Below, piece after piece: positions 25,613 through 48,100 of a stretch of DNA of 64,000 nt (position 1 is the stretch's first letter; every line of letters begins with the position of its first letter). The stretch comes from Paramacrobiotus metropolitanus. Lineage: Eukaryota > Tardigrada > Eutardigrada > Parachela > Macrobiotidae. The notes beneath the pieces were generated by a model. The model worked only from the letters and a program-made list of their open reading frames with translations. It did no database searches and was not told where the DNA came from. The position numbers were made by a program, and so were the translations under genes. The stretch spans positions 558,001 through 622,000 of the forward strand of contig NW_026570271.1 of the NCBI RefSeq assembly GCF_019649055.1, in the 5' to 3' direction.

Positions 25613-26545
25613 TTAGCCAAAGGCGCCGGAAGTATATGCGTAGACACCGCTAACATCAAATTCCGGAACGCCGTTCTTATACAGAACCGCTCCGCCGTAC
25701 GGTGTCACCGGGAAGTTTAGTTTCTCAGCCAAAGCCTTAACGGACGGATTATCATCCAAGCAGTCGAACTGCACGTACTCAATCCCTTCCGGTAATGCAT
25801 TGATCATAGCCACCGCCAATTGTTCGGCCACATTCAGGCTATCGGCAAACAGCGGTCCAAACTTACACCATTTATCCCCGATGCATTTGCGCAGCGCTCC
25901 ATACCCGTGAATCACCCCATCCTTCACGTACACCAACGCGGACGTAACCTTTGGATGTGTCAACCAAGCGTGGAGGAATTTCTCGCGGTCTGCCGGGAAA
26001 TATCGCCGATCAAAATTCAATACCTCCTTGAAATCCACATCTTTCAGCGGAATAATGTACGCCGGATTGTAACCTTCGGGCAGCGGCAGTTTTTCGGGAT
26101 TTTGCTTCCGGTAGATGGATGCCGTCCCGGTTTGCGCGAAACCTTGTCGTTTGTACCATTCCGTCATATGCGGGGCGGCGTATAGACCGATGACCCGATC
26201 TCCGCAGTGCGCGATGCTGGCGTTGAAGACTTTGGTGCCGAAGCCCTTGCCCTGATGTTCATCAAAGGTCATGAAAGTCCCAATGAACGCGAATTTGTCG
26301 TTGTGGTTGACGGCAGAAATCATGCTGACGATTTCGCCGTTCAGGAGACCGACGTAATTTCCTTCTGGATCAATCAAGGAAGAAAACGTGACGTGCCCAT
26401 AACCGGCTGGCCAACCGTTCTTGGCCGCCATGTCGTACAGCGTGGTCTCCAGCTTGTTACGGAGTTCATTGGTATCGCAGCAGCGTACCTCAAAGTCGGT
26501 ACCTGTGTACTCTTGTTTGATCGGTTTTTCTGTTGACTGAGCCAT
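25613..26545 (-). CDS. Tandem-GNAT N-acetyltransferase, copy 1
   Basis: Single-exon, 310 residues. The N-terminal half is a GNAT domain (about 20-150) with the acetyl-CoA loop HQGKGFGTKVF at about 115-125 and the following helix plus WYKRQGF. The C-terminal half (about 160-300) is a second GNAT-like domain of the type often annotated as Acetyltransf_18/DUF1248 (FDRRYFPADREKF, KDGVIHGYGALR, FDCLDDNP). It ends FDVSGVYAYTSGAFG, identical in the copy at 38032. It is expected to be a soluble acetyl-CoA-dependent acetyltransferase; substrate unknown. It has no signal peptide. The single-exon structure contrasts with the intron-rich neighbours, but codon use and GC look like the surrounding genes. 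Confidence 0.9.
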   Translation of the reverse strand: MAQSTEKPIKQEYTGTDFEVRCCDTNELRNKLETTLYDMAAKNGWPAGYGHVTFSSLIDPEGNYVGLLNGEIVSMISAVNHNDKFAFIGTFMTFDEHQGKGFGTKVFNASIAHCGDRVIGLYAAPHMTEWYKRQGFAQTGTASIYRKQNPEKLPLPEGYNPAYIIPLKDVDFKEVLNFDRRYFPADREKFLHAWLTHPKVTSALVYVKDGVIHGYGALRKCIGDKWCKFGPLFADSLNVAEQLAVAMINALPEGIEYVQFDCLDDNPSVKALAEKLNFPVTPYGGAVLYKNGVPEFDVSGVYAYTSGAFG

Positions 26546-35083: not shown

Positions 35084-38031
35084 CGAATACCGGATGAATT
35101 AAAAGGAAAACACTTTATCGCCGGTATATTTGTCGGATGATTGTGTGGTGGTGCGCCGTTATTGTGGATCACTGCTCCGGCACGAGAGCGCATCCTGGCT
35201 GAGCAACCAAAAAAGAAAGCGTCAATTTATTGATAATCAACGGAAATAATTCCGCGGGATCAACACTGAGAGTCCGCCATTCTTGATACACCCGATCCAG
35301 TGATATTCAAACGGTGAAACACCGGAAAGCGTTATAACATCTGGATAAGCGTACATACAGTAATTATCTATGAATCCGAAGGCATGTCAATATTACGTGC
35401 GGTATAACACAACATGAGTCAATAAAATTATTATTGACTTTTAAGCATCATAATACACGATTTTTATCAACCGTTTGAATGAACACATGCATGCGTTCCT
35501 TTGCAGTCTAGTACACTGTGTTCGATAGATAGTTTATTAACCGTTGATATTTGATCCGGCATAATTACCGTCATTTGCCGCTGATGTGTAACTTCCTTTT
35601 TATGCTAAGTAAATAGGACTGCTGTGCTGCAACTCTGCGGAAAAAAACGTGGCCATTTGCAATTTCTAAACATATTATCCAACGTTTTACGAGAAAAAAT
35701 TTTCTGGTTTTCTTTTGCTGCCACTATGATAAGAATTTATGATTATGGAAACTCGCACAGCTAACTCGCCATGAGCTGGCTTAGCTGGCTGCTGTTCTAT
35801 AAGTTATCGAAATTACCAAAGCATGATGGCACTGCTCGTAATAAACTGGAAGGCGACGCGCACCGCTTTCATGAATAATAACTTCGACCCCTCCCATGCA
35901 CTGTAAAACAAAAGGAAGGAACCGGAAATGTTCTCGGATACTTCAAGCAGGAGTACCACGCCTACGCCTCTTAATATTAGCGGAATGCCGGCCCCAGGCA
36001 CTGACGGCATCTATCGGCTACACCGCCTACACACAAAATATACCTATCTGCCGTATACCGGAAATTATCTTCTGTCGGTTATATTGCAATGTTCCTGAAA
36101 CTTCCGATTGTAATTCGATCGGTATCTCTGACGGTCGTCATTACCTTTCTAATTCTTTCGACTAGTACAGTGACGACCAAGCTAAAAAATGCCAGCATAA
36201 TCTAAGACTACAAATATTTATGAGTATTTGATTTCCAATATTTCTGTCGACTGAATTCAAGAAACGGTTACCTTTCATATGAAGTGTATCATAATCACTA
36301 CGTCAGTAAGCAGTGTCGACGTCATAAGTTAAAAGTGCGTTTACGTTCGCACCGGAAACGCTCGGCCACGCAAATTTTGTTTGTATTGGTCCACTCAAAT
36401 AAAAGTGTCCCAGAAATGCAAACTGTTTTAGGAGATTGAGAAAGTTTTAAAACAAAGAACAGCCAAATCGTAGGTTGCACACCGCCGCGTTTAACTGCAA
36501 TCTAATTTACATGTTGAACGTCACTGCTCGATGATCGTTTGTACGGCAAGGGATACTATTTTTATTATCATCAGCACGCGGTGGATAATAAAAGCGGCAT
36601 TGCAACGTCTTGTACGATCATATTACAACAAAAGCGGTCTTAATATTAATGCAAACAATACGAGTATCGGATTTCTTGAAGCGATTGCTGCAAGCATAAA
36701 CGGTTAGGGGTAAAAATTCTTGCACGTCCAGTAAAAGTAACTTCCTTTAGTGTAGGCAATGCGTTACCTGGATGGTGAGGTATGAGACCTCACGAGACCG
36801 TGAAGCCACTTGATATGGACAGCAAAGGGTACATTGTTTACTGGTCCCATGGAAGGCTGCCTTTAACTTCCGCACGCGTGCAGACGACCTGAAAAAGTCA
36901 TGCCCAAGAAAATCATCGCTTCTGGGCGCCTTCTGCACATGACAGACACTGTCTGACACCGAAATCGTCTCTGATTGGCCTCATTTTTTCCGAACACAAA
37001 CTGCCATTAAACAAAAGCGAACCCGGCGCATAAAACGTAGGTTCAGGATAACCGAAACATATTGGATTACTCTACACGAATAATACGAGTATGCAGTAAA
37101 TAACCAGTGTATTGTGATAAGCGCTGCTGCAGTGCAGTGGAATTACTCCACAGAAAATAGCGTCCATGATTTGTGGGTTGCAATAGCAATGTATTCTTCA
37201 TCTCTTACCAATGCAAGCCACACCAAAGTTCATCCAATGGAAATGTGCATACATAATGTCTTCGCAATATGGACACTTGTGGCAGTAAACTGTTCGAAAT
37301 TCCACATGCACATATAAATCCAATAAATTTACAAGCAACCTGCAACGTGCTGTTTTAATAAACCAAAGGTTAGGATCGACCTCATCTTCATCTAATTTAA
37401 CTAATTCGCCTGCCCAGCCTGCACTAACCAAACCAAGCACTGCATTAGCACAACAGCAGAACTATCCCAATACAAATCATACTTCCGCTTGCCGGTCGTA
37501 ACGACACATCCGCTGACGACGCATGCGCCGGCCTGAATAACAAATAATACTGCTGTACTGCTGCACTTATTGAAAAATAATGACCGAATTCGGGCTATAA
37601 CACTAAGCCAGTTGTCGGCATAATCGCATAATAGTTACTATTGTTGCGGCGCGCACGGAATAATGCTTCAAGAAAAAAGTGAGCCATTTGTTTTATTAGT
37701 AAATATCACTCGTATAAGTATTTGTCAGACCACGCATGGCGCAGACAGTAGGTAACCAGGCAGACTCTTGTGGATGAATACATTACGACAGTCAGTTCAC
37801 CAAAATGCTGAGTAAGCCTTTTTTGGTTATGGTAATGCGCGGTAACTATCGTAGCTTGCAATGTGAGCCGCTTTACGCAGTTTAATAAATAACGGTATAA
37901 AATGCAAATACAAAGAAAAAATGGTTGAAGCAACGGTCTCCTTTGGAATCTGAACAATTCTGCACGCATAAGCAAAAAGAGAGTGCGCCCGTAAACAATT
38001 ATGAAACGCCGCAAGTACCTATGCAGATAAA
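35084..38031. other. Intergenic, no supported gene
   Basis: About 2.9 kb between cyclase C and GNAT copy 2. A 70-codon minus-strand frame at 36747-36959 is Cys-containing but lacks a signal peptide, splice sites or a recognised motif. A small palindrome GTGAGGT/ACCTCAC lies near 36776-36790. Nothing else supported. Confidence 0.4.
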
Positions 38032-38973
38032 TTATCCAAACGCTCCGGACGTGTAGGCGTACACTCCGCTCACGTCAAACTCCGGACGACCGTTCTTCCA
38101 CAACACCCTTCCCCCGTGCAACTCTCCTGTGGGCGAGAAGCCCACTTTCTCCGCCAACCTGTCCGTCTGGGGATTGTCATCGAGGCAGTCAAACTGTACA
38201 ATCTCGGTGCCTTCCGGAACCGCATTCAACATCGCTAACGCCAGCTGTTCAGCCACGACGAAGCTATCGGCGAACAACGGTCCGAATTTACAGATTGTAT
38301 CCCCAATGCACTGCCGAAGCACTCCATAACCGTGAATCACTCCGTCCTTAACAAACGCCGGTGCCAGTATAACCTTAGGGTGAGATAACCAGGCGCGGAG
38401 AAACTCCGGTCGGTCCGCTGGAAAGTACGACCGGTCGAAACGACAAAGATCAGCGAAATCCAGATCTTTCGCGGGAATGATGCAGGCCACCGGGAAATCT
38501 GCAGGAAGATCCACTTTTCCGGTGTATGGCTTCCGAAAGATGGAGCATGTCCCGGTCTGAACAAATCCGTGGCGTTTGTACCATTCGGTCATGCGCTGGT
38601 TAGAGTATAAACCAGTCACTCGATCGCCGGCATGCTGGAGGCATTCCCGGAAGAGTTGGGTCCCGTAGCCTTTGCCTTTGTGTCCGTCGGCCGTTAGGAA
38701 CGTCCCGATGAAGGATAACTGGTCGCCGTAATTCACGGCGGACACCATGCTGACGATTTCTTTGTTTAGTAGGCCGACGAAATTGGCTTCCGGATCGATC
38801 AAGGTAGAGAATTTGATCGAGTCGTATCCGGCGGGCCAGTTGTCCCTGATAGCCCATTCTTTTATGGTTGATTCGAGTTGGTCACGCAGAGCATCTGTAT
38901 TACAGCAGCGTACCTCGATGTCGGTAGTGACAACACTGCCGTTGTTGTTTCGTATTTCCTCGGACTCAGTCAT
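38032..38973 (-). CDS. Tandem-GNAT N-acetyltransferase, copy 2
   Basis: Single-exon, 313 residues, colinear with the copy at 25613 over its whole length. The first GNAT domain has the acetyl-CoA loop HKGKGYGTQLF and WYKRHGF. The second half has FDRSYFPADRPEF, KDGVIHGYGVLR, CKFGPLFADS and FDCLDDNPQ. Both paralogs end FDVSGVYAYTSGAFG. The N-terminal 20 residues differ. It should be a soluble acetyl-CoA-dependent acetyltransferase of unknown substrate. It lies upstream of cyclase C on the same strand, as copy 1 lies upstream of cyclase B, which suggests that a cyclase-GNAT unit was duplicated together. Confidence 0.9.
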   Translation of the reverse strand: MTESEEIRNNNGSVVTTDIEVRCCNTDALRDQLESTIKEWAIRDNWPAGYDSIKFSTLIDPEANFVGLLNKEIVSMVSAVNYGDQLSFIGTFLTADGHKGKGYGTQLFRECLQHAGDRVTGLYSNQRMTEWYKRHGFVQTGTCSIFRKPYTGKVDLPADFPVACIIPAKDLDFADLCRFDRSYFPADRPEFLRAWLSHPKVILAPAFVKDGVIHGYGVLRQCIGDTICKFGPLFADSFVVAEQLALAMLNAVPEGTEIVQFDCLDDNPQTDRLAEKVGFSPTGELHGGRVLWKNGRPEFDVSGVYAYTSGAFG

Positions 38974-40108
38974 CGTGGAATAAAAATAATTCAGTTGGTC
39001 GCTTTCGGTTTCACCGTGAAGCGAACGTAGATTTAGCTACGGATGTTCCAAATTAAAAGCTTCTTCATGTGTCAGTATTATGTTAAACAGCAAGCATCCT
39101 ATCCGCATTCCATCCCAGCTGCTGCGCAAATTCACTTTCAAGAAAATTACTTTGTTGGACCAACAAACTGAGAAGGCAGATCGCTGACTGGCCGACGAAG
39201 CAATTCTATCGCTTGATCAAATCAAGGAGCGCAGACTGAATTCGAGACATTTAAGATTTTGAATACGGAACTGGATACGAAACGGTTATGGTGCAGTTGA
39301 GCTGTTGTTATCAACGTAGCTAGGGCGCTGCGCTGTAATAAACAGCTGATTGGGTATCGTTTGCGAGTGTAGGACGACTTCAAGTTCAAGCACATAGCAG
39401 TGACAGCACGATAAAATATTCTACAAGTATCAATGGCACAACGTGTTGCAATTAATTACTGGGACTCGTGTGTGGCACTATGTAATTTGTGATATCAGAA
39501 CCGGTTTGCAGGCACTCGATAATACGACGGAAGCTTATGCCATGTGGGCTGTGTAATACTCTTTCATCAAGATGTTTATCGCCGCTTTATCTGTACAATT
39601 ATTATTGTCGTTATAGTTTAATTCCACTGCCGTTTTCATTTTCAACTGACGAAGATCATTTAAAATGAATGAATGGAAAATAACAATAATAAAAAAGGGT
39701 GCCTCTGTCTTTTATTACAACGTTTTTAGTTGCAGTTCCTTATAATTAAAATCTCAGAGATTATTTCTATTAATATTTATTTTTTTAGAACGTTTTACCT
39801 ACTTTTAATTAATCCTACTTTAATTAACAGCTGCTGAAGTGTTAAATAATAATTTATTTTAATTTCCCCAGTGATCATGACATTTCTTTTCTCGGTTAGG
39901 CACAATTTGTTTATTTGAGTCCAGTATTATATTAATTTTATGACGACTGTACAGATACCACCATAAATATCGCATATAGCGTATACGTGTATACCGCACC
40001 GTATTGTGCCCGGTACTAATATTATAAGTCCGTGCCGGCAACATTATTGTGAATCACAATCGGACTTGAATCGGTTAAGCGCATTTCATAAATCTTTAGC
40101 ATCTATCG
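38974..40108. other. Intergenic, no supported gene
   Basis: AT-rich. Nothing coding or structured seen. Confidence 0.4.
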
Positions 40109-40501
40109 CTACAGAGCACCGTGAAAGTCACTGACGGTACAATAAGGTTTTACAGCGAAATGTGCCTCCCGAGCGCTGCATCTGCAATAAAGATCGTTAA
40201 TTTTCGTGTGCAATGTAAAAAATTTTTGCTATGCTTTTAGAGTTCACAAGAAAATCTGGAACGGTTCCATATATCACGGTGGCAGGAAGAATTTGATCAC
40301 TGGAATCGTATTTTCATACCTGGGAAGGGGGATCTCACGCTCAGCAGTAGCGTTTGCAGACCCGTGTGTGGCATTGATGGTTGTCAGGTGCGCAACGGAG
40401 TTTCCTGGAGGACGACCGATCTCCAGTCCCGTATCCCCAGTCGGTTGCAAAAGAATCAGGAAGAAGACGATCCCGAACACTAGCTCCTGATGATGCAGCA
40501 T
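40109..40501 (-). CDS. Small secreted peptide, family copy 1
   Basis: Coding exons 40320-40501 and 40109-40181 (phase 2) give 84 residues. An untranslated first exon appears to run from about 40857 to 40730, joined by a 212-base intron (GTGAGC donor, TTTCAG acceptor at 40518-40520). The N-terminus MLHHQELVFGIVFFLILL is a signal peptide. The mature part has an N-glycosylation site (NAT) and ends VSDFHGAL. Copy 2 has the same layout. Two compensating 1-base indels in the last exon restore the frame (shared FAVK, then DF-x-G-x-L and stop), which supports real coding. No known family recognised. A second open frame overlaps exon 2 (see findings). Function unknown; a secreted signal or effector is conceivable. 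Confidence 0.6.
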
Positions 40502-40570
40502 GGCTGCAGTTGTTAACCTGAAACATCATAACACGATGATGCTCCCGCCATGCTGCATCATCAGGAGCTA
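40481..40570. repeat. Perfect 23-bp inverted repeat around the 3' splice site and start codon, copy 1
   Basis: Arms 40481-40503 and 40548-40570 are exact reverse complements, separated by 44 bases. In the minus-strand transcript the first arm lies in the intron, the loop holds the TTTCAG acceptor (40518-40520), and the second arm covers the ATG and the next six codons. Confidence 0.9.
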
Positions 40571-40856
40571 ATTTTCCTGGAGCGCTTAATTCGTATCAAC
40601 ATAATAAACGTCGAGGAGTCAAGGAGGAGGAGAATTAAACACAATTCAAAAGCTTTGCATGAAAATAAATGATCCCAAAGATATAATATTATAAGATTCG
40701 GTTTTAATTCTAGGGCAATGCTAGCTCACCTTTAAACGGGTATACGACCAGTATACCTGGTAGAAAGTTACCCAAATAATGCTGTTTTCAAGGAAAACCG
40801 GAAACTCAATAAGAATGCAAAATATTGCCACGAAAAACAGGTAACAGTTGACGTGT

Positions 40857-40967
40857 CGAATGAAACTGAGATCTTCCCTTTATATAGCTACGTCGCGACT
40901 GTAGTCGTTTAAAACGCACCATTAACAGATGTGTGTACCGTCTGTCCAACGTGGCTCTGCCACGCCT
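40857..40967 (-). promoter_or_regulatory. Predicted promoter of peptide copy 1
   Basis: Minus-strand TATATAAAG at 40878-40886 is followed about 30 bases downstream by TTCGACAC, which recurs as TTTGACAC at the same place in copy 2. A 26-base block at 40942-40967, containing CGTGG-ctctg-CCACG, recurs exactly at 43508-43533 upstream of copy 2. Confidence 0.55.
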
Positions 40968-42615
40968 GTTATAGGTCCTCCAATCGCGAAACCTACACAT
41001 TACATTTTGCAACCTTACTCGGCTGTCTTACAAATAATCGAATCTCCCTCGCTCTGAATCATGGTATCTGAATAAGAAAATTAATTAGGAACTGGTTAAT
41101 GTTGCACTAGACCGTTATGACGTGAATTGTCACACGCGTGGGTCAAAATGGTGTTGTGCTGTGCCCATGATGAGTCACATCGCCATGTGGAGCACAATAC
41201 GCTATCAACACAACCTGTTGTTCACGAGATATCAAACTAGGTTGTTTACGAGATGCAACCCGTAGAAATCGCTTTCGGGGCTGATGCAATTTAGGTGTTA
41301 TTTTGCGATTGATTCTGCTGCTCATTCTGCAGCATGTACCTCTTAGCAATTAGAACCGTATACGTATGTATTCTTTCGGCTGTGCAGGTGTTAAACCGTA
41401 TCAAGGTAGTGAAAAATAAAACAGTGAACGATAAATAAAGAACCGAATGCGACGTGCAGCATGATATCGGCTAGTCAGTGGTCACTAGTCACTAACCGAC
41501 TACTTCAGTGACTCTGTGCCGTATAATATTTTGGCGCGGCATTTTAACACAAATTGCAATCCCTTTTGCCGTAGCTGTTTGAGTACTCGACGTCGTAGGG
41601 CTGCATTACCTTTTTTATATGATAAAATCATAAAAATTTTAGAATTGTTGCTGCCAGCACAAGCGGCCATCTTGCGATAAGTACGATTTACGAACATGAG
41701 TACAGGGTTCACATGTTGTAGTTCGTGCATATGACAAAGTGCTAAGGCTTCAACGTGTACAACACGTGCTTATCTATGTGGAGTAGGTCGTTGGATTTTG
41801 AGGACGAACCGGTTTTCTAATCCGCTGTTTCAGCAGAATGATATCAGAATTGAATGATATCATGTCATAATTATGTAGCATTGCGTGTTCAATTTTTTCT
41901 AAAGCATGTTGTACTAATTGCTGGGATCAGCAGAATGGCAGCAGCTTACTGAGTGCCGCATTCTCATTTTTCCTTACTTATTTAAAACGCTGTGGTATTT
42001 GCGTCTGGTTGGTGTATGCTTGCTGCTACAACCTCACGCTGCTTCTCTGTTAGATTCAATATTTACTGGAACTTTTTATTAACAACTGGACTTTATTTCG
42101 TTTCGTATAAACCTGGCATAAACTGCAGATATACTGTTACCGTTGTAACTTGTAATCATAACGCTATAACGAAGTTTGTTGTGCATTAATCGCACTTCTC
42201 AAAAAACAAAACCTCGAAGAATCTTTTTGTTCCTTTAATCATTTTACGCAGTTTGTATGACGAATGACGAGTACATGGTAAAATCTGCTAGTTTTTTGTT
42301 TTTTTTTACTCAAGTGACTTATCGTTAGAATCATATTTTTTTATTGAGGATGTTTTTATTGAAGGTGAGGTTTCTTATTGAGGATCAACGACTGTCAAAA
42401 CATAGAATGGGCAAAAAAGCTGCATTTCTCAGTGACCACGACACTTTCTATTGGTTAGAAATAGACTCTAATCACGTCTTAGCATTTCTGAAATTCTGGT
42501 TGCAATACTACCCTAGTAGTAATTAGCGCACTTTAATATAAGTCCGATCTGGCAATTTATTGTGGTTCACACACAGTCACATAAGCGCATTGACATAAAA
42601 ATTTAGTAGCTAACA
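40968..42615. other. Spacer between peptide copies 1 and 2
   Basis: No supported gene. It resembles the spacer after copy 2 in places, consistent with duplication of a unit of about 2.6 kb. Confidence 0.4.
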
Positions 42616-43103
42616 CTACAAGATGCCACAAAAATCAGCTGACGGTACAATAAGCTTTACAGCAAACGCGGTGGCTCCCGAGCGGTACTTAAAATATATA
42701 TAACAAAGATCGTTATGATTAATATTATTATTTTCTTTCTAACATGAAAAGCTTAAATGTTGCGTTTTGATTAAGCGCTAAGCCTAAATGTTGCGTTTTG
42801 CTTAAGTTTTGCGTTTTGATTTCACACAAAATCCAGAGTGTTTTCATAAATCTTGGTGGTGGTGGTAACAATTTAACAATAACTGGAATCGCAGTTCCAT
42901 ACCTGGTCGAACGGAACGGGACGATTGCGCGGCTGTGCTGTAGCGTATACAGTATCTGTACCTTGCGTGGCATTGACGGCTAACAAAAGCGCACCGGAAA
43001 TAGCTGAAGGACGGTTGCCGCATGCCAGAGCCGTACTCCCAACCGGTTGCGGGAGGGTCAGAATAACGGCGGTCCAGAACATCAGCTCCTGATGATGCAG
43101 CAT
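42616..43103 (-). CDS. Small secreted peptide, family copy 2
   Basis: Coding exons 42903-43103 and 42616-42687 (phase 0) give 90 residues. An untranslated first exon ends at 43320 (GTGAGC donor) with a 200-base intron to the TTTCAG acceptor at 43120-43122. The N-terminus MLHHQELMFWTAVILTLPQP is a signal peptide. The mature part shares NAT-x-G with copy 1 and ends AFAVKLIVPSADFCGIL. The upstream exon also contains a short hydrophobic frame (MQFLFILLLNNILLF) that stops before the donor. The exon layout, donor and acceptor match copy 1. Confidence 0.6.
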
Positions 43104-43171
43104 GGCTGCAGTTGGTAACCTGAAACATCATAACACGATGATGCTTCCGCCATGCTGCATCATCAGGAGCT
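43084..43171. repeat. Perfect 22-bp inverted repeat around the 3' splice site and start codon, copy 2
   Basis: Arms 43084-43105 and 43150-43171 are exact reverse complements with a 44-base loop holding the acceptor (43120-43122). The geometry is the same as in copy 1. Confidence 0.9.
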
Positions 43172-43449
43172 AATTTTCTTGGAGCATTTAATCGGTACCT
43201 TTGTTATTACCATGGACGAGCCTGAATTACAGATGATTCAAGAGCTTCTTATCAAAATAATTGATATCCGACGAGAAGAGTAAATAGTAAATTTTAATTC
43301 TACAGCAGCACAAGCTCACCTCTTGAAGGGTGTACTAATACGCCGAGATTACTTGGTAGCGTCGGAACAAAAGAATGTTGTTCAGCAGCAAAATAAAAAG
43401 GAACTGCATATAAATTCACTGTGTGGCTCCAGATAGGTAACACTATAAG

Positions 43450-43533
43450 TGTCAAACGAGCCCGAAGGTCTCTTTATATACAGCATTGCCATGTTACGCA
43501 TGATTATCTGTCCAACGTGGCTCTGCCACGCCT
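43450..43533 (-). promoter_or_regulatory. Predicted promoter of peptide copy 2
   Basis: Minus-strand TATATAAAG at 43472-43480, a TTTGACAC near 43445-43452, and the shared 26-base block at 43508-43533. The block lies 28 bases from the TATA box here and about 56 bases from it in copy 1. Confidence 0.55.
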
Positions 43534-44854
43534 CACCGGCAATCCCACTGCAATAAAAAACGTTGAATTTTCAGTTTGTTCGGTTGCTTTGCAAGCATAA
43601 GGAATCTACCCCGCTCTGAATCACGCTCTCAGGACAAAAACATGAATCAGGAACTGGTTAATGGCGCACTGCGGCGTGGTGAGGGAGAGGATCGCACGCT
43701 GGGGCCACCTGAACGGTGGCACATTTATTTTGCATTGTACCAGTAATGGGGCTTATCGCCCCGCAGAACAAGACATTCCAGCAACCCAACGTGTTGATAT
43801 TATGCAGAATTCGTTTTTGGAGTGATGCAATAACGCATTATTTTTGCGCTCGATTCTGCTCTACATTATACGTAGAGCTTCCACTTTCCAGTTTCAGACA
43901 GGCACATATAGTGTAACTGAGTGTGTGCTGCTGCACATCACGTGATCCATTTGCCGTTCCCGTTCTTGTATGCAACGCAGTAGATCACATAAATTTTCGT
44001 ATCAATAAAATACTTTAAATTAAAAATGCCGGTTTACAGGTTGCAAGTACAAAATTATAATTGTACGGTACCGTTGCCGTTCGTATCGTTTAATAGTGAC
44101 TTACACATGCTTCACAATTCAGTTTGTAGTGTTGCAGAGTGGCAATGACCGTACGTATACACGTGGGTCCTGCTTAAGGTCAAGTGCAGCAGTGCTTAAC
44201 TGCGTGTGTACCAAGCATTCTTGTGTACATAGGTTGATTTTGGAAATTAAACCGGTTTTCTATCCTGTTTTACAGTAGTACTCCATGTATTCGATCAGAT
44301 GTCATAATTATGTAGTTCGATGTCATAATCATGCCGTAATATGTCTGCACTTTTTGTAAAACATGCTGTATTAACTGATGTGATCAGCAAAACGCCACCA
44401 GGTTATTGAGAAGTGAGACCCACGAAATCATTTTTTAAAGCGTTGCTGTTTCTGTGTTTTATTGCTGTACGTATGCTATGCATCAGCTGTCAGCTACTTA
44501 TCCGTGACATTATTTGAAAATATTTTTACAGACTGGGCTGTGTAGGCTGTATTTTATTTCAGACTTAATACGACCTGTATCTTATTAATTTTATCGTTAA
44601 AATTGTTATCATAACTGTTTAGCATGGTCGCTCTCGCAGCCAATAGCGAATAATTAATCTGAAAAGTCTAGAAACTGAGTGCCGTTTGCACAATTATGTA
44701 CGTATACAGTAAGAAAATTAACATGAACGCTTTTTGTTCCATGCAGAACTGAAGATTCTCACCGTCGGAAACACTATAAAACAAAATAACCGGTAAACCA
44801 CATCATATTTTACTGCACAAGATCATCCGTCCAAGACAATTAATATATTTTTAC
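43534..44854. other. Spacer between peptide copies 2 and 3
   Basis: No supported gene. A possible final exon of copy 3 follows a TTTTATAG acceptor near 44785 and would add only CFRR before a stop. Confidence 0.35.
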
Positions 44855-45100
44855 CTTTTCCGATGAACGGCCTTGTAAGCCTTGTTCCTTTGCCTGCCAT
44901 GTGTGGGAGACAAGATGGTGCACGATAATTCCTGATCGCTCTTCCATAACCGCAGCAGCGCTTGCCACATACATGCCAGCATCACATCTGGGATGGAATG
45001 CCCCTTTAGCACCGCTGAAGGTTTGCAGCTCCGTATCCACCGGTCGTGGGAAATTCCCCAGCAGTAATGCACTCCAAAACACGAGATTTTGATACTGCAT
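44855..45100 (-). CDS. Small secreted peptide, family copy 3 (3' end uncertain)
   Basis: Exon 44855-45100 starts ATG at 45098-45100, just downstream of a TTTTAG acceptor (45113-45115 region), and ends at an AAG|GTAAAA donor. It gives 82 residues starting MQYQNLVFWSALLLGNFPRP, a signal peptide aligned with copy 2 (FW-S/T-A, then P-R/Q-PV). The rest is diverged: RCDAGMYVASAAAV, then an Arg/Gln/Lys-rich end. The next exon is not certain. The short acceptor-to-ATG distance and the hairpin match copies 1 and 2, and are the best evidence for family membership. Confidence 0.45.
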
Positions 45101-45171
45101 GGTGGTAACAACCTAAAACAACACAAGCAAAATGATGCTTCAGGTACTGCAGTATCAAAATCTCGTGTTTT
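45076..45171. repeat. Perfect 24-bp inverted repeat around the 3' splice site and start codon, copy 3
   Basis: Arms 45076-45099 and 45148-45171 are exact reverse complements with a 48-base loop. The arm sequence (AAAACACGAGATTTTGATAC onward) differs from copies 1 and 2, but pairing is perfect and the placement relative to acceptor and start is unchanged. Confidence 0.9.
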
Positions 45172-48100
45172 TGGAAAGTTATATATATATCATGCTAGCA
45201 CGGAAGTAAAAAATTATCCATGATGCAAGAACTCCATAAACGGCACGCAAAGTCTGTATAACTAAAGAGAGGCTTTAAAATTTTCGATAATTCAACCGCA
45301 AAAAATTGAAAAAGGAAAATTATGTAATTATTTCAGTAAAGCAGCAAAATACGTAACGAAATTCTCCATGCAAAACAACTAAAGCGTTTCATTTTTACCG
45401 CTATTACCGTGTGCGCACCTCCACAAATGCAGACGTATACGAAAAGTGATGCACCAATATAAATACTGTATGCTACGATAATAATATAGGCCACCATCTA
45501 CGAAAGACGAAAATAAAAATGTTATGACAGCCATCATTTGTGCTGAAAACTTCCGGTTATATACCACGGGAATATTATCCCACCATGCTTACTCAAGTAA
45601 TTATTTACCAATATGGGTTCCGCCACATATTTTTGCCGATTCATTTCGGCAATGAGAATAGCAATTTTGTTTTAATTTTGGTGAACACTGAACTGATAAA
45701 GTGATTCACCTAACTTTTGAATTACACCCTCTTGAACAGTACCGTGAAAGCGCGTTTAATATGCTGCTCTGCAGAGTGCTAAATCTACAAGCCAAAGCTA
45801 AGACAAACGAAACACCCATTAAAATAACTTTGTACAATATAATGTCGCAGCGGTGTATCTCCTAGCACTTTTGCCTATATTGAAAAACAATTCGAAAAGC
45901 TAATTGGCTATAATCTTGCCAAAAGCAAACGCAGTGCAAAACAAAACGATATCCTAACCAATAAAACACATATAAAAGTTGAGTAGTTATTTAAACCATG
46001 ATAGGAATATTCTTGTTGAGCTATATTTTATTCATCGAAGCAGCAAATACCGGAAAGAAGATAAACTGTACGTATGATCGTATGTTTCATATAGCGTGTT
46101 TGTCGGAACTTTTTGCACAGATATGCTTTCGGATGCATAGTGAATCTTCCTTTGGACAAGAAAATACGTATGTATAGTCTGCCGGCATTCATTATGATCG
46201 TGACATGTATATTGAAAAATACGTTTTATGCGAAACGTAGGAGCGCACGTTGCATGGTTGCAAAGATGGCAACAAATCAGCCATCGTGGCCTAATTTTTC
46301 TCCCAGGTTAACAGTACGTACGTCACAAACAAGCCAATCATCTGAAATGCAATACGTGCCAATCAAGGGAGCATTTCCAGGCTTTAGGTTCACAGGGACC
46401 TCTGACTTACCGATGCCATAAACTGGCGATTAATTATACAAACTCCGACAAAATTAACCCGGTCGACACCATGCATGCCAATTGGCACAGTGAAGGACCG
46501 AATTTTTGCAGCTAGTTCTAACGCTCCTACAGTGTGTTTGTTGGTTTTATTTCAAACGAGAAGAGTGAAATTATAGTTAAAAACGGGAAATTCCACAGTC
46601 CAGCGTTACCACAGAGCTCTGGGAATGACCAAAGGTGGACAAAAATGACCAGACTAAGTTCGCGAAGGTCTCGGCCACCTGCCCAAAACCTCCCGCATCC
46701 GATAATTACCCAAAAATCACACTTCTAGTATCCATAGGACTTCATGTGAAAATGATCAGGTTGTACATGCACAGGTGGACACCGTCCGCCCACGGCCATT
46801 CTAAAAATCTGTGCCAGTTTTGGCACGCATGGGTTTGGTGCCATTCTATGTCAGAAGTTAAAAATTCTATATAAAAATATTGAATCAAGATAAAAAATTG
46901 CACTTACAATAAAAAAATCCCAATAAATTATCCCTTATCACTGATCGTGGTTCAGTGGTCATCGAACTGACCAGTGGCCACTTAAGGTCAAAAAATCACA
47001 AAAAATCACTTATTGGCCGATAGCGCGAAAATTAAAGATACTAGGCACAGACATTTCGTACTAAACTTTGTTTCGGCATTCCCCAAACACTACTTGTACT
47101 TTGTTGTGTACCTAGTCTTAAGGAGAAATGTGCAACAAGAAAAAATAAAAAAGGCCTGCAGATTGAGTGACGTTGTCGATGTCGTTCGGTGCATGGCCGG
47201 AGTGCAACAATTAGGCTTACAACCGCCTGCGCCTTATAGCCCCGAGCCCCCGGTGTTTCTACACTTCTGTAATGTTTTGAATATTGCAGTGTCACCTCAG
47301 TACTTTGAGTATACATGCACTTCACGAGTATACACTTTAAAATTTAAATAATGTACTATCTCTTTATTAATCCATTAGCATTTATTACTGCATATGCTTA
47401 AACTTCCGGTCAGTAACACTTCCGGTTGGACTAATCTGCCCTCTAGGTTAGGGTAGACAGGTCTGCCGATTGAGGTTGCGTCTTAGTAATGACAAAAGCT
47501 GCAATCATAACGATAGGTTAACATTATCGTCATAATAAAACCATTTGTATATTATCGTAAATCCAGTCTCCAAGTTGTATAAGGAAAGGTACAGTACTGC
47601 CTTTACACTAGTGCCCAGCGTCTAGTGTCGTCTCTGGACTGGACACCCGTGCTGTTACTGCAAGTGACAAAATGACTGCTGAGTCCATGCCCGTCACAAT
47701 CCAACACAGCACACTGAGACTTGTACTCATTTCCGTATCAATCAAGCTGGTCAACGCAGGATGCTGTTTCTTACTTCGCTTGTTTCCTCAGGAACAAAAT
47801 TTTTTGGCTTGCACAGCGCTAAGCGATTTGTCGTTGATTGACTTCTCTCAGTTTTTCTGCAATATACTAAGCACATTATATCATGTTTGCGCCGTGTCAG
47901 CTCTGATAGGTGGCTCTACGCATTTTTCTTTTTTTGCTGACCGCTGGTCATCTTGCTGACCATTTGAATTGTTGAACTAAATAGCGCTCGTCAAGACCTT
48001 CTGCTTAAACTAATCTAAGTTCTTGTACGATTTTTTTATGAATTGTTATTTGAGTAAAAATGTACGATGCCAATTGGCTCAGTTCCCATGCGTGCCATTT

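What the first reader, a model, noticed from the sequence alone, without database searches (positions are those of the whole stretch)
40481..45171. Hairpins bracketing 3' splice site and start codon, kept by co-varying arms in three paralogs
Each of the three small secreted peptide genes carries a perfect inverted repeat (23, 22 and 24 bp) with a 44, 44 or 48 base loop. In each, the intronic arm, the acceptor in the loop, and the arm covering the ATG and the first six to seven codons lie in the same order. Copy 3 has a different arm sequence, yet both its arms match each other perfectly. Either RNA pairing is under selection (it would hide or expose the acceptor and start codon), or the arms are homogenised by local gene conversion. 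I know of no described element with this layout.
Basis: partly seen in the sequence, partly recalled or inferred. Interest (0 to 1): 0.85.

Follow-up and report, generated by a model that had tools for sequence, protein, structure and literature searches.

The report
Hairpin locking splice site and start
In a genome that looks like a water bear's, three neighbouring genes for small secreted peptides each carry a near-perfect RNA hairpin over the splice site and start of the message, and its two sides have changed together in evolution, which suggests a built-in switch that makes splicing decide whether the peptide can be made.

Summary
Three perfect inverted repeats (arms 24, 23, 24; loops 42, 42, 48) are the only ones with arms of 14 or more and loops up to 300 in the window. 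All sit at the first coding exon of a minus-strand secreted-type peptide gene; by assembly size the host is probably the tardigrade Paramacrobiotus sp. TYO. The 5' arm is intronic (inferred for copy 3), the acceptor lies in the loop, the 3' arm covers the start of the coding sequence.

Copies 1 and 2 match at 94 of 99 sites there, against 64% around it, with dS 1.2 after the arm. A fourth, hairpin-only relic lies on another contig. From copy 1 to copy 3, 17 changes hit paired sites, yet 28 of 29 pairs remain.

Best reading: a selected pre-mRNA hairpin hides acceptor and early coding sequence until splicing destroys it; template switching may have kept the arms perfect. DNA-level homogenisation alone, or a small-RNA precursor, remain open. 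No transcript data were available.

The parts
40547..40570 (-). copy 1, 5' arm of hairpin (end of predicted 5'-UTR intron)
   Evidence: perfect inverted repeat; 24 of 24 identical to copy 2
40505..40546 (-). copy 1 loop: branch-site-like AGCATCAT 40543-40536, inner stem 40545-40536/40529-40520, acceptor AG 40519-40518, exon 2 begins 40517
   Evidence: 40 of 42 identical to copy 2
40481..40504 (-). copy 1, 3' arm: start codon 40501-40499 and codons 2-7
40109..40855 (-). copy 1 gene: TATA box at 40886, exon 1 ~40855-40730 (start assumed 31 bases after the TATA box), intron 1 40729-40518, exon 2 40517-40320, exon 3 40181-40109 (stop); 84-aa secreted-type peptide
   Evidence: gene model, not confirmed by transcripts
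43149..43171 (-). copy 2, 5' arm of hairpin
43107..43148 (-). copy 2 loop with AGCATCAT 43145-43138, inner stem 43147-43138/43131-43122 and acceptor; exon 2 begins 43119
43084..43106 (-). copy 2, 3' arm: start codon 43103-43101 into codon 7
42616..43449 (-). copy 2 gene: TATA box at 43480, exon 1 ~43449-43320 (start assumed), intron 1 43319-43120, exon 2 43119-42903, exon 3 42687-42616; 90-aa secreted-type peptide
   Evidence: not confirmed by transcripts
45148..45171 (-). copy 3, 5' arm of hairpin
   Evidence: 21 of 24 identical to the relic on contig C52
45100..45147 (-). copy 3 loop with AGCATCAT 45139-45132, inner stem 45141-45132/45124-45115 and acceptor; exon 2 begins 45112
45076..45099 (-). 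copy 3, 3' arm: TG of the start codon (ATG 45100-45098) to codon 8
44759..45112 (-). copy 3 gene: exon 2 45112-44855, exon 3 44773-44759; 86-aa secreted-type peptide; upstream exon not identified

Best explanation
The hairpin is a functional element of the pre-mRNA of a small family of secreted-peptide genes. As the end of intron 1 is transcribed, the 5' arm pairs with the first codons and encloses the whole acceptor: branch-site-like motif, pyrimidine tract and AG, which themselves form an inner stem in the loop. While folded, it masks the acceptor and the early coding sequence, so an unspliced transcript neither splices readily nor starts translation well. Once the spliceosome or a helicase opens it and the intron is removed, the 5' arm is gone and the early coding sequence is free. 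Splicing would thus be the on/off switch of the peptide. Shown: the hairpin, its position in the gene models, conservation of the whole unit, co-varying arms, predicted masking and unmasking. Inferred: that pairing occurs in cells, that it slows splicing or translation, and that selection rather than mutation bias maintains it. Template switching may supply the paired changes on which selection acts.
For: Hairpin-specific conservation between copies 1 and 2: 94 of 99 sites in the hairpin (5' arm 24/24, loop 40/42, 3' arm 23/24) against 88 of 139 in the rest of intron 1 and 104 of 160 in exon 2 after the arm, gap columns left out (Fisher P 1.6e-10), with dS 1.21 and dN 0.50 in the 77 coding codons after the arm. 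The first seven codons, usually the least constrained part of a signal peptide (recalled), are the best conserved, so the constraint looks nucleotide-level. Copies 1/2 against copy 3: outer stem 19 of 19 pairs kept with 13 changes in the paired sites and 6 double changes; random placement keeps 11.4 on average, none of 20,000 trials reached it. The pairs are in one register in an alignment made without structure. The two outer-stem changes between copies 1 and 2 exchange U-A and U-G, which pairs as RNA; two changes are too few to be significant (P 0.29). Predicted unpaired probability: pyrimidine tract and AG 0.09, 0.10, 0.09 and the branch-site-like AGCATCAT 0.02, 0.02, 0.14 in the three precursors, whose means are 0.36-0.39; first 21 coding nt 0.00, 0.00 and 0.05 in the precursor and 0.49, 0.36 and 0.33 after splicing (copy 3: exon 2 alone). 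Coding is supported by matching ends of copies 1 and 2 (FAVK...DF.G.L, same stop) although exon 2 ends in different phases.
Against: No RNA data. The perfect arms have no internal wobble, and some double changes between copies 1 and 3 (C-G/A-T, T-A/G-C, A-T/C-G) have no wobble intermediate, which template switching explains more easily than stepwise selection. The inner stem alone is weakly supported: copy 1 to 3 keeps 9 of 10 pairs, P 0.27 (0.03 in the other direction). In the C52 relic pairing is kept no better than at random: 21 of 28 pairs against 20.1 expected, P 0.40. The gain within 6 bases of the start codon is small by prediction, 0.16 to 0.28 in copies 1 and 2, and goes the wrong way in copy 3, 0.43 to 0.22. 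A first window meant for the branch region read 0.58-0.59 unpaired; it lay over the inner loop and was replaced by the motif itself. Copies 1 and 2 could have been homogenised by interlocus conversion. Only four copies were found, in one genome.
Confidence: 0.45

Rival explanations
1. DNA-level homogenisation without RNA function: replication template switching (quasi-palindrome correction) rewrites one arm from the other, and conversion of the hairpin unit between copies 1 and 2, plus copying of the unit to contig C52, explain the rest.
For: Arms are perfect beyond need; the changed pairs between copies 1 and 3 lie in columns 11-24 of alignment A2. Published precedent: template switching creates and maintains hairpins (PMC8794818, passages) and homogenises inverted-repeat arms in coding genes (PMC8604942, listing and start of abstract only). 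The relic on C52 shares only the hairpin with copy 3, no flanks, so the unit may have been copied alone.
Against: Arm-to-arm copying does not conserve the loop (40 of 42). Conversion of a tract of about 95 bases between genes with dS 1.2 whose borders fall near the stem ends would need a hairpin-specific mechanism. U-G exchanges at the stem edge are not made by DNA copying, though there are only two.
Confidence: 0.32
2. The hairpin is a small-RNA precursor overlapping an acceptor: Drosha/Dicer cutting and splicing compete. The 5'-arm RNA is perfectly antisense to the start of its own mRNA (copies 1 and 2 to each other too), giving self-silencing; the C52 relic may be a stand-alone derivative against copy 3.
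For: Size and perfect stem suit Dicer (recalled). Seven RNase III domain matches over the cut-off at four places, and 57 Piwi-domain matches at E<=0.001 (exons counted apart), show the machinery in this genome. In the C52 copy the outer 21-23 bases of the 5' side are identical to copy 3. Splice-site-overlapping miRNAs are known (PMC8465124, passages).
Against: No match to a miRNA family at its gathering score: best mir-580, 35.8 bits against 83. The loop is as conserved as the arms, unusual for a miRNA (recalled). Over the whole 24-base arms the C52 copy differs from copy 3 at 3 of 24 (5') and 6 of 24 (3'), no significant asymmetry (P 0.46); the P of 0.05 came from a hand-chosen stretch. The copy 1/2 arm sequence occurs nowhere else at up to 3 mismatches. 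No small-RNA reads available. (Odds lowered from 0.20 after this recount.)
Confidence: 0.18
3. Chance or recent inverted duplication kept passively in young tandem genes.
For: Copies 1 to 3 are tandem within 5 kb.
Against: Copies 1 and 2 are old (dS 1.2), the hairpins of copies 1/2 and 3 are homologous in register but differ at 13 paired outer sites, and no such repeat appears in the Markov controls.
Confidence: 0.05

Closest known systems
[quoted passage not shown] miR-34b on the acceptor of its host, miR-412)
   Same: A hairpin straddles an intron-exon junction, so cutting competes with splicing (PMC8465124, passages read).
   Different: Here the stem also holds the start of the coding sequence, the stem is perfect, the loop is long, conserved and contains the acceptor, and no small RNA or Rfam miRNA match at the gathering score is known.
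Drosophila hairpin RNA (hpRNA) loci and their target genes
   Same: Hairpin arms homologous and complementary to coding sequence of genes that they silence (PMC10317233, passages read).
   Different: Here the hairpin lies in cis inside the gene itself, with a single 23-24 bp duplex; hpRNA arms are usually much longer (recalled).
Template-switch-made RNA hairpins
   Same: Perfect stems and several paired changes close together (PMC8794818, passages read).
   Different: Loop and whole unit are conserved between old paralogues, which template switching alone does not give.
Coding palindromes in nematomorph mitochondrial genes
   Same: Perfect inverted repeats overlapping coding sequence, kept despite protein constraint (PMC6649704, abstract read).
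   Different: There both arms are coding and the repeats are mitochondrial and up to 284 bp; here one arm is intronic.

Membership tests
RNA structure masking an acceptor and a start codon | acceptor and early coding sequence lie inside a stable structure of the precursor | tested here: met
   by prediction only:
RNA structure masking an acceptor and a start codon | start codon itself becomes more accessible after splicing | tested here: inconclusive
   0.16 to 0.28 in copies 1 and 2; 0.43 to 0.22 in copy 3
RNA structure masking an acceptor and a start codon | pairing maintained by compensating changes across homologues | tested here: met
   outer stem of copies 1-3; few copies, and DNA-level copying gives the same pattern
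RNA structure masking an acceptor and a start codon | inner stem over branch site and pyrimidine tract maintained | tested here: inconclusive
   one compensated pair, P 0.27/0.03 by direction
RNA structure masking an acceptor and a start codon | structure lowers splicing or translation in cells | not testable with these tools
   no transcript or reporter data
SO-miRNA | hairpin spans an exon-intron junction | tested here: met
   (gene models, not transcripts)
SO-miRNA | belongs to a described miRNA family | tested here: not met
   the four miRNA matches at E<=1 in 38000-48000 are far below their gathering scores
SO-miRNA | mature small RNA from an arm, Drosha/Dicer dependent | not testable with these tools
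   machinery present, no reads
hpRNA locus | long inverted repeat complementary to a separate target gene | tested here: not met
   the copy 1/2 arm matches only the two genes themselves; for copy 3 the C52 relic is the only other exact match of the 21-base pattern
Template-switch hairpin | several paired changes arising in one event on a tree, or loop inversion | tested here: inconclusive
   changes lie close together, but no outgroup; loop not inverted in the four copies

The most novel reading that the evidence does not exclude
A 'splice or dice' self-silencing gene: one hairpin in each transcript is either spliced, giving a translatable mRNA, or cut, giving a small RNA perfectly antisense to the start of that same mRNA (and, for copies 1 and 2, of its sister), so each gene carries its own co-evolving silencer; the hairpin-only copy on contig C52 would be an escaped trans-acting silencer of copy 3.
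Probability: 0.11. Interest if true: 0.88.

Novelty: new variant of a known kind. Interest (0 to 1): 0.6.

Why it matters
If the pairing is selected, this is an animal gene family in which removal of an intron and exposure of the early coding sequence are the same physical event, a simple logic gate that would hold back translation of unspliced RNA. It also gives a natural case for separating stepwise compensatory evolution from template switching, an open question in RNA evolution, because one arm is constrained as protein and the other is not. If the host is the TYO tardigrade, published RNA-seq exists and the splicing question can be tested from existing reads.

Tried and rejected
More family members: whole-genome protein searches at E<=1 with copy 3 found only copy 3 itself, and with copy 2 found copies 1 and 2, so the peptide relation of copy 3 to copies 1/2 is not detectable that way. 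DNA searches with copies 1 and 3 found the three copies and C52. Arm patterns up to 3 mismatches gave only the four known sites for copies 1/2 and, for copy 3, 14 sites against 1 for the reversed-pattern control; 3 of the 14 are copy 3's two arms and the C52 copy, the other 11 have 2-3 mismatches and were not followed except one. That one, C66:65416, scores 12.5 bits, E 2.5, with the covariance model: treated as chance. A loop-motif pattern found only copy 3 and C52 at 0 mismatches; at up to 2 mismatches it had 10 sites against 8 in the control. Whole-genome search tools score only their best candidates, so further decayed copies may be missed.

C52 as a coding locus: the relic lies inside an opposite-strand 158-aa ORF, which at first looked like a source gene. 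Rejected: no Pfam match, no genomic relative (best other E 1.18), codon score no better than random open frames (P 0.86; a weak test, since copies 2 and 3 are not separated by it either, P 0.21 and 0.42, and copy 1's frame was off by one in that script), and differences from copy 3 not concentrated at third positions (9, 4, 7 at positions 1, 2, 3).

Arm asymmetry of the C52 copy: first read as 0 of 23 against 5 of 25 columns, one a gap (P 0.05); with the whole 24-base arms it is 3 against 6 (P 0.46). Dropped as evidence.

Mobile element: the arms are not repeated in the genome. Trans-splicing: one literature search on tardigrades and spliced leaders listed 5 papers, none on tardigrade trans-splicing by title or abstract start; not tested further. 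Rfam: sub-threshold look-alikes only.

Literature: four searches for a described element with this layout showed none in the titles and abstract starts listed: 15 of 38 papers, 12 of 73, 8 of 281, 4 of 4. A search on tardigrade small RNAs (15 of 25 listed) showed no small-RNA data set for this animal by title. This does not show absence from print; most subscription papers are not held.
Full report
What was checked. The window is C51:558001-622000 of a 169.8-Mb genome in 533 contigs. Contig lengths C1 4,484,719 and C51 1,033,953 lie close to the longest scaffold (4,484,941) and N50 (1,033,707) of the 170.5-Mb, 684-scaffold assembly of the tardigrade Paramacrobiotus sp. TYO (PMC8277472, passages read). 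That this strain is P. metropolitanus, whose reported genome is 170 Mb (PMC11191345, passages read), is recalled. The identification rests on sizes, not on sequence.

The hairpins. A search for perfect inverted repeats with arms of at least 14 and loops up to 300 returned exactly three in 64 kb, those of the finding: arms 24, 23, 24; loops 42, 42, 48. None occurred in 20 Markov sequences, and none with arms of at least 20 and a loop of 20-100 in 14 arbitrary 10-kb stretches of the genome. As RNA of the minus strand they fold at -64.6, -67.5 and -53.8 kcal/mol, better than all 200 shuffles each; the C52 relic folds at -25.7, z -3.3, one of 200 shuffles as good. The fold has two tiers: the outer stem, and in the loop an inner stem pairing a conserved AGCATCAT (branch-site-like, by inspection) with the pyrimidine tract.

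The genes. On the minus strand, acceptors are followed by start codons at 40501, 43103 and 45100 and open frames with hydrophobic N-termini (signal peptides by inspection, not predicted by a tool), a donor and a short last exon: 84, 90 and 86 aa. Copies 1 and 2 share a TATA box, a GTGAGC donor and a palindromic upstream element. Their last exons agree in the C-terminus and stop although exon 2 ends in different phases, and after the arm dN 0.50 is below dS 1.21 (77 codons), so they look like real coding genes, although a codon-usage score does not separate copies 2 and 3 from random open frames (P 0.21 and 0.42). No Pfam family matches at E up to 10 (copy 1 was given as a 75-aa read-through past its donor). 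Copy 3 shares with copies 1 and 2 the hairpin and a short stretch of signal peptide after it (anchored global alignment of about 60 bases, P 0.004 and 0.013); over 250 bases downstream the likeness is not significant (P 0.12 and 0.10) and upstream there is none to copy 1 (P 0.90). No GTAAG, GTGAG or GTATG donor lies nearer than 420 bases upstream of copy 3's arm.

The hairpin is the conserved unit. Between copies 1 and 2 identity is 94 of 99 in the hairpin (5' arm 24/24, loop 40/42, 3' arm 23/24), and 88 of 139 in the rest of intron 1, 77 of 123 in exon 1 and 104 of 160 in exon 2 after the arm, gap columns left out. In 50-column windows the hairpin stands at 96%; other windows range from 12 to 82%, gaps counted as differences; those at 78 and 82% overlap the hairpin's edges, and the last exon reaches 80%. 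A genome search with copy 3 found one more place, C52:675583-675679, 75% identical over 100 query bases (seen again from the other side). This likeness covers the hairpin and nothing else: the 250-base flanks are not similar (P 0.37 and 0.40). In the C52 copy the start codon is followed by a stop at codon 4 (ATG CAG CAT TAA, read), so it is no working peptide gene in that frame. Its arms differ from copy 3's at 3 of 24 (5') and 6 of 24 (3') sites, P 0.46.

Co-variation. In a MAFFT alignment of the four copies made without structure all outer pairs fall in one register. Of 29 pairs tested, 8 have a both-sided change; 93% of 115 cells pair, against 24.6-59.3% when the partner is slid by 1-3 columns. 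In the tool's own shuffles the number of pairs with a both-sided change was reached in 13 of 500, the percentage paired and the covariation score in 0 of 500, and the number of pair types in 208 of 500. From copy 1 to copy 3, 28 of 29 pairs survive 17 changes in the paired sites, 6 of the pairs doubly changed; random placement keeps 19.3, and 0 of 20,000 trials reach 28. From copy 3 to the C52 copy, 21 of 28 pairs survive 12 changes, about what chance keeps (20.1, P 0.40). So pairing is kept where the gene is intact and drifts where it is not: one case, suggestive only. The structure came from these sequences, which favours it over slid controls. The inner stem by itself is not significant in one direction (P 0.27) and weakly so in the other (0.03).

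How it probably works. Predicted unpaired probability in the three precursors is 0.09-0.10 for the pyrimidine tract and AG, 0.02, 0.02 and 0.14 for AGCATCAT, and 0.00, 0.00 and 0.05 for the first 21 coding nucleotides; after removal of the intron the last rises to 0.49, 0.36 and 0.33 (copy 3 as exon 2 alone because its upstream exon is unknown; start sites of copies 1 and 2 assumed 31 bases after the TATA box). Within about 6 bases of the ATG the change is smaller (0.16 to 0.28 in copies 1 and 2) and in copy 3 goes the other way (0.43 to 0.22). I therefore propose a lock on acceptor and early coding sequence that splicing destroys. That it acts in cells is inference.

Rivals. Template switching during replication can create perfect stems and several paired changes at once (PMC8794818, passages); it fits the arms without wobble and the clustered changes but not the conserved loop, unless the unit is also converted between copies. 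The hairpin-only copy on C52 would fit copying of the unit. A small-RNA precursor fits the stem and the machinery found in the genome (seven RNase III domain matches over the cut-off at four places, 57 Piwi matches at E<=0.001), and splice-site-overlapping miRNAs set a precedent (PMC8465124, passages); no Rfam miRNA reaches its cut-off and no reads were available. On checking, the odds of the small-RNA rival went from 0.20 to 0.18 and of the novel case from 0.13 to 0.11, because the arm asymmetry of the C52 copy did not hold; the DNA-level rival went from 0.30 to 0.32.

Verdict. Observation confirmed and strengthened; interpretation partly supported. New variant of a known kind: hairpins over splice sites are known, but one that joins the acceptor and the start of the coding sequence of a gene family with co-varying arms was not seen in the listings (titles and abstract starts of the papers listed).

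Noticed in passing
40941-40966 and 43507-43532 (minus strand): A 26-base element with an internal palindrome (CGTGGCagaGCCACG), identical upstream of the TATA boxes of copies 1 and 2, was found at only these two places in the genome at up to 3 mismatches; perhaps a shared promoter element.
   Followed up: partly
G000:C52:675583-675679 (L006:1501-1597): Hairpin-only relative of copy 3 with no similarity in its flanks. How a hairpin alone was copied or kept is unexplained.
   Followed up: yes
L023:4542-5018 (minus strand): 158-aa orphan open frame with a signal-like N-terminus (by inspection) overlapping the C52 relic; probably not coding.
   Followed up: yes
G000, 11 further sites listed: The copy 3 5'-side sequence has 14 near matches (up to 3 mismatches) against 1 for the reversed pattern; two of the 11 unexplained ones are the same variant on contigs C1 and C60. 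Only C66:65416 was looked at.
   Followed up: partly
window 25613-26545 and 38032-38973 (minus strand): Two open frames of 310 and 313 aa, similar to each other and acetyltransferase-like by inspection; other frames nearby look receptor-, kinase- and kelch-like by inspection.
   Followed up: no
L031:1202-1544: 28-bp inverted repeat with further nested repeats, 343 bases long: perhaps a small transposable element.
   Followed up: no
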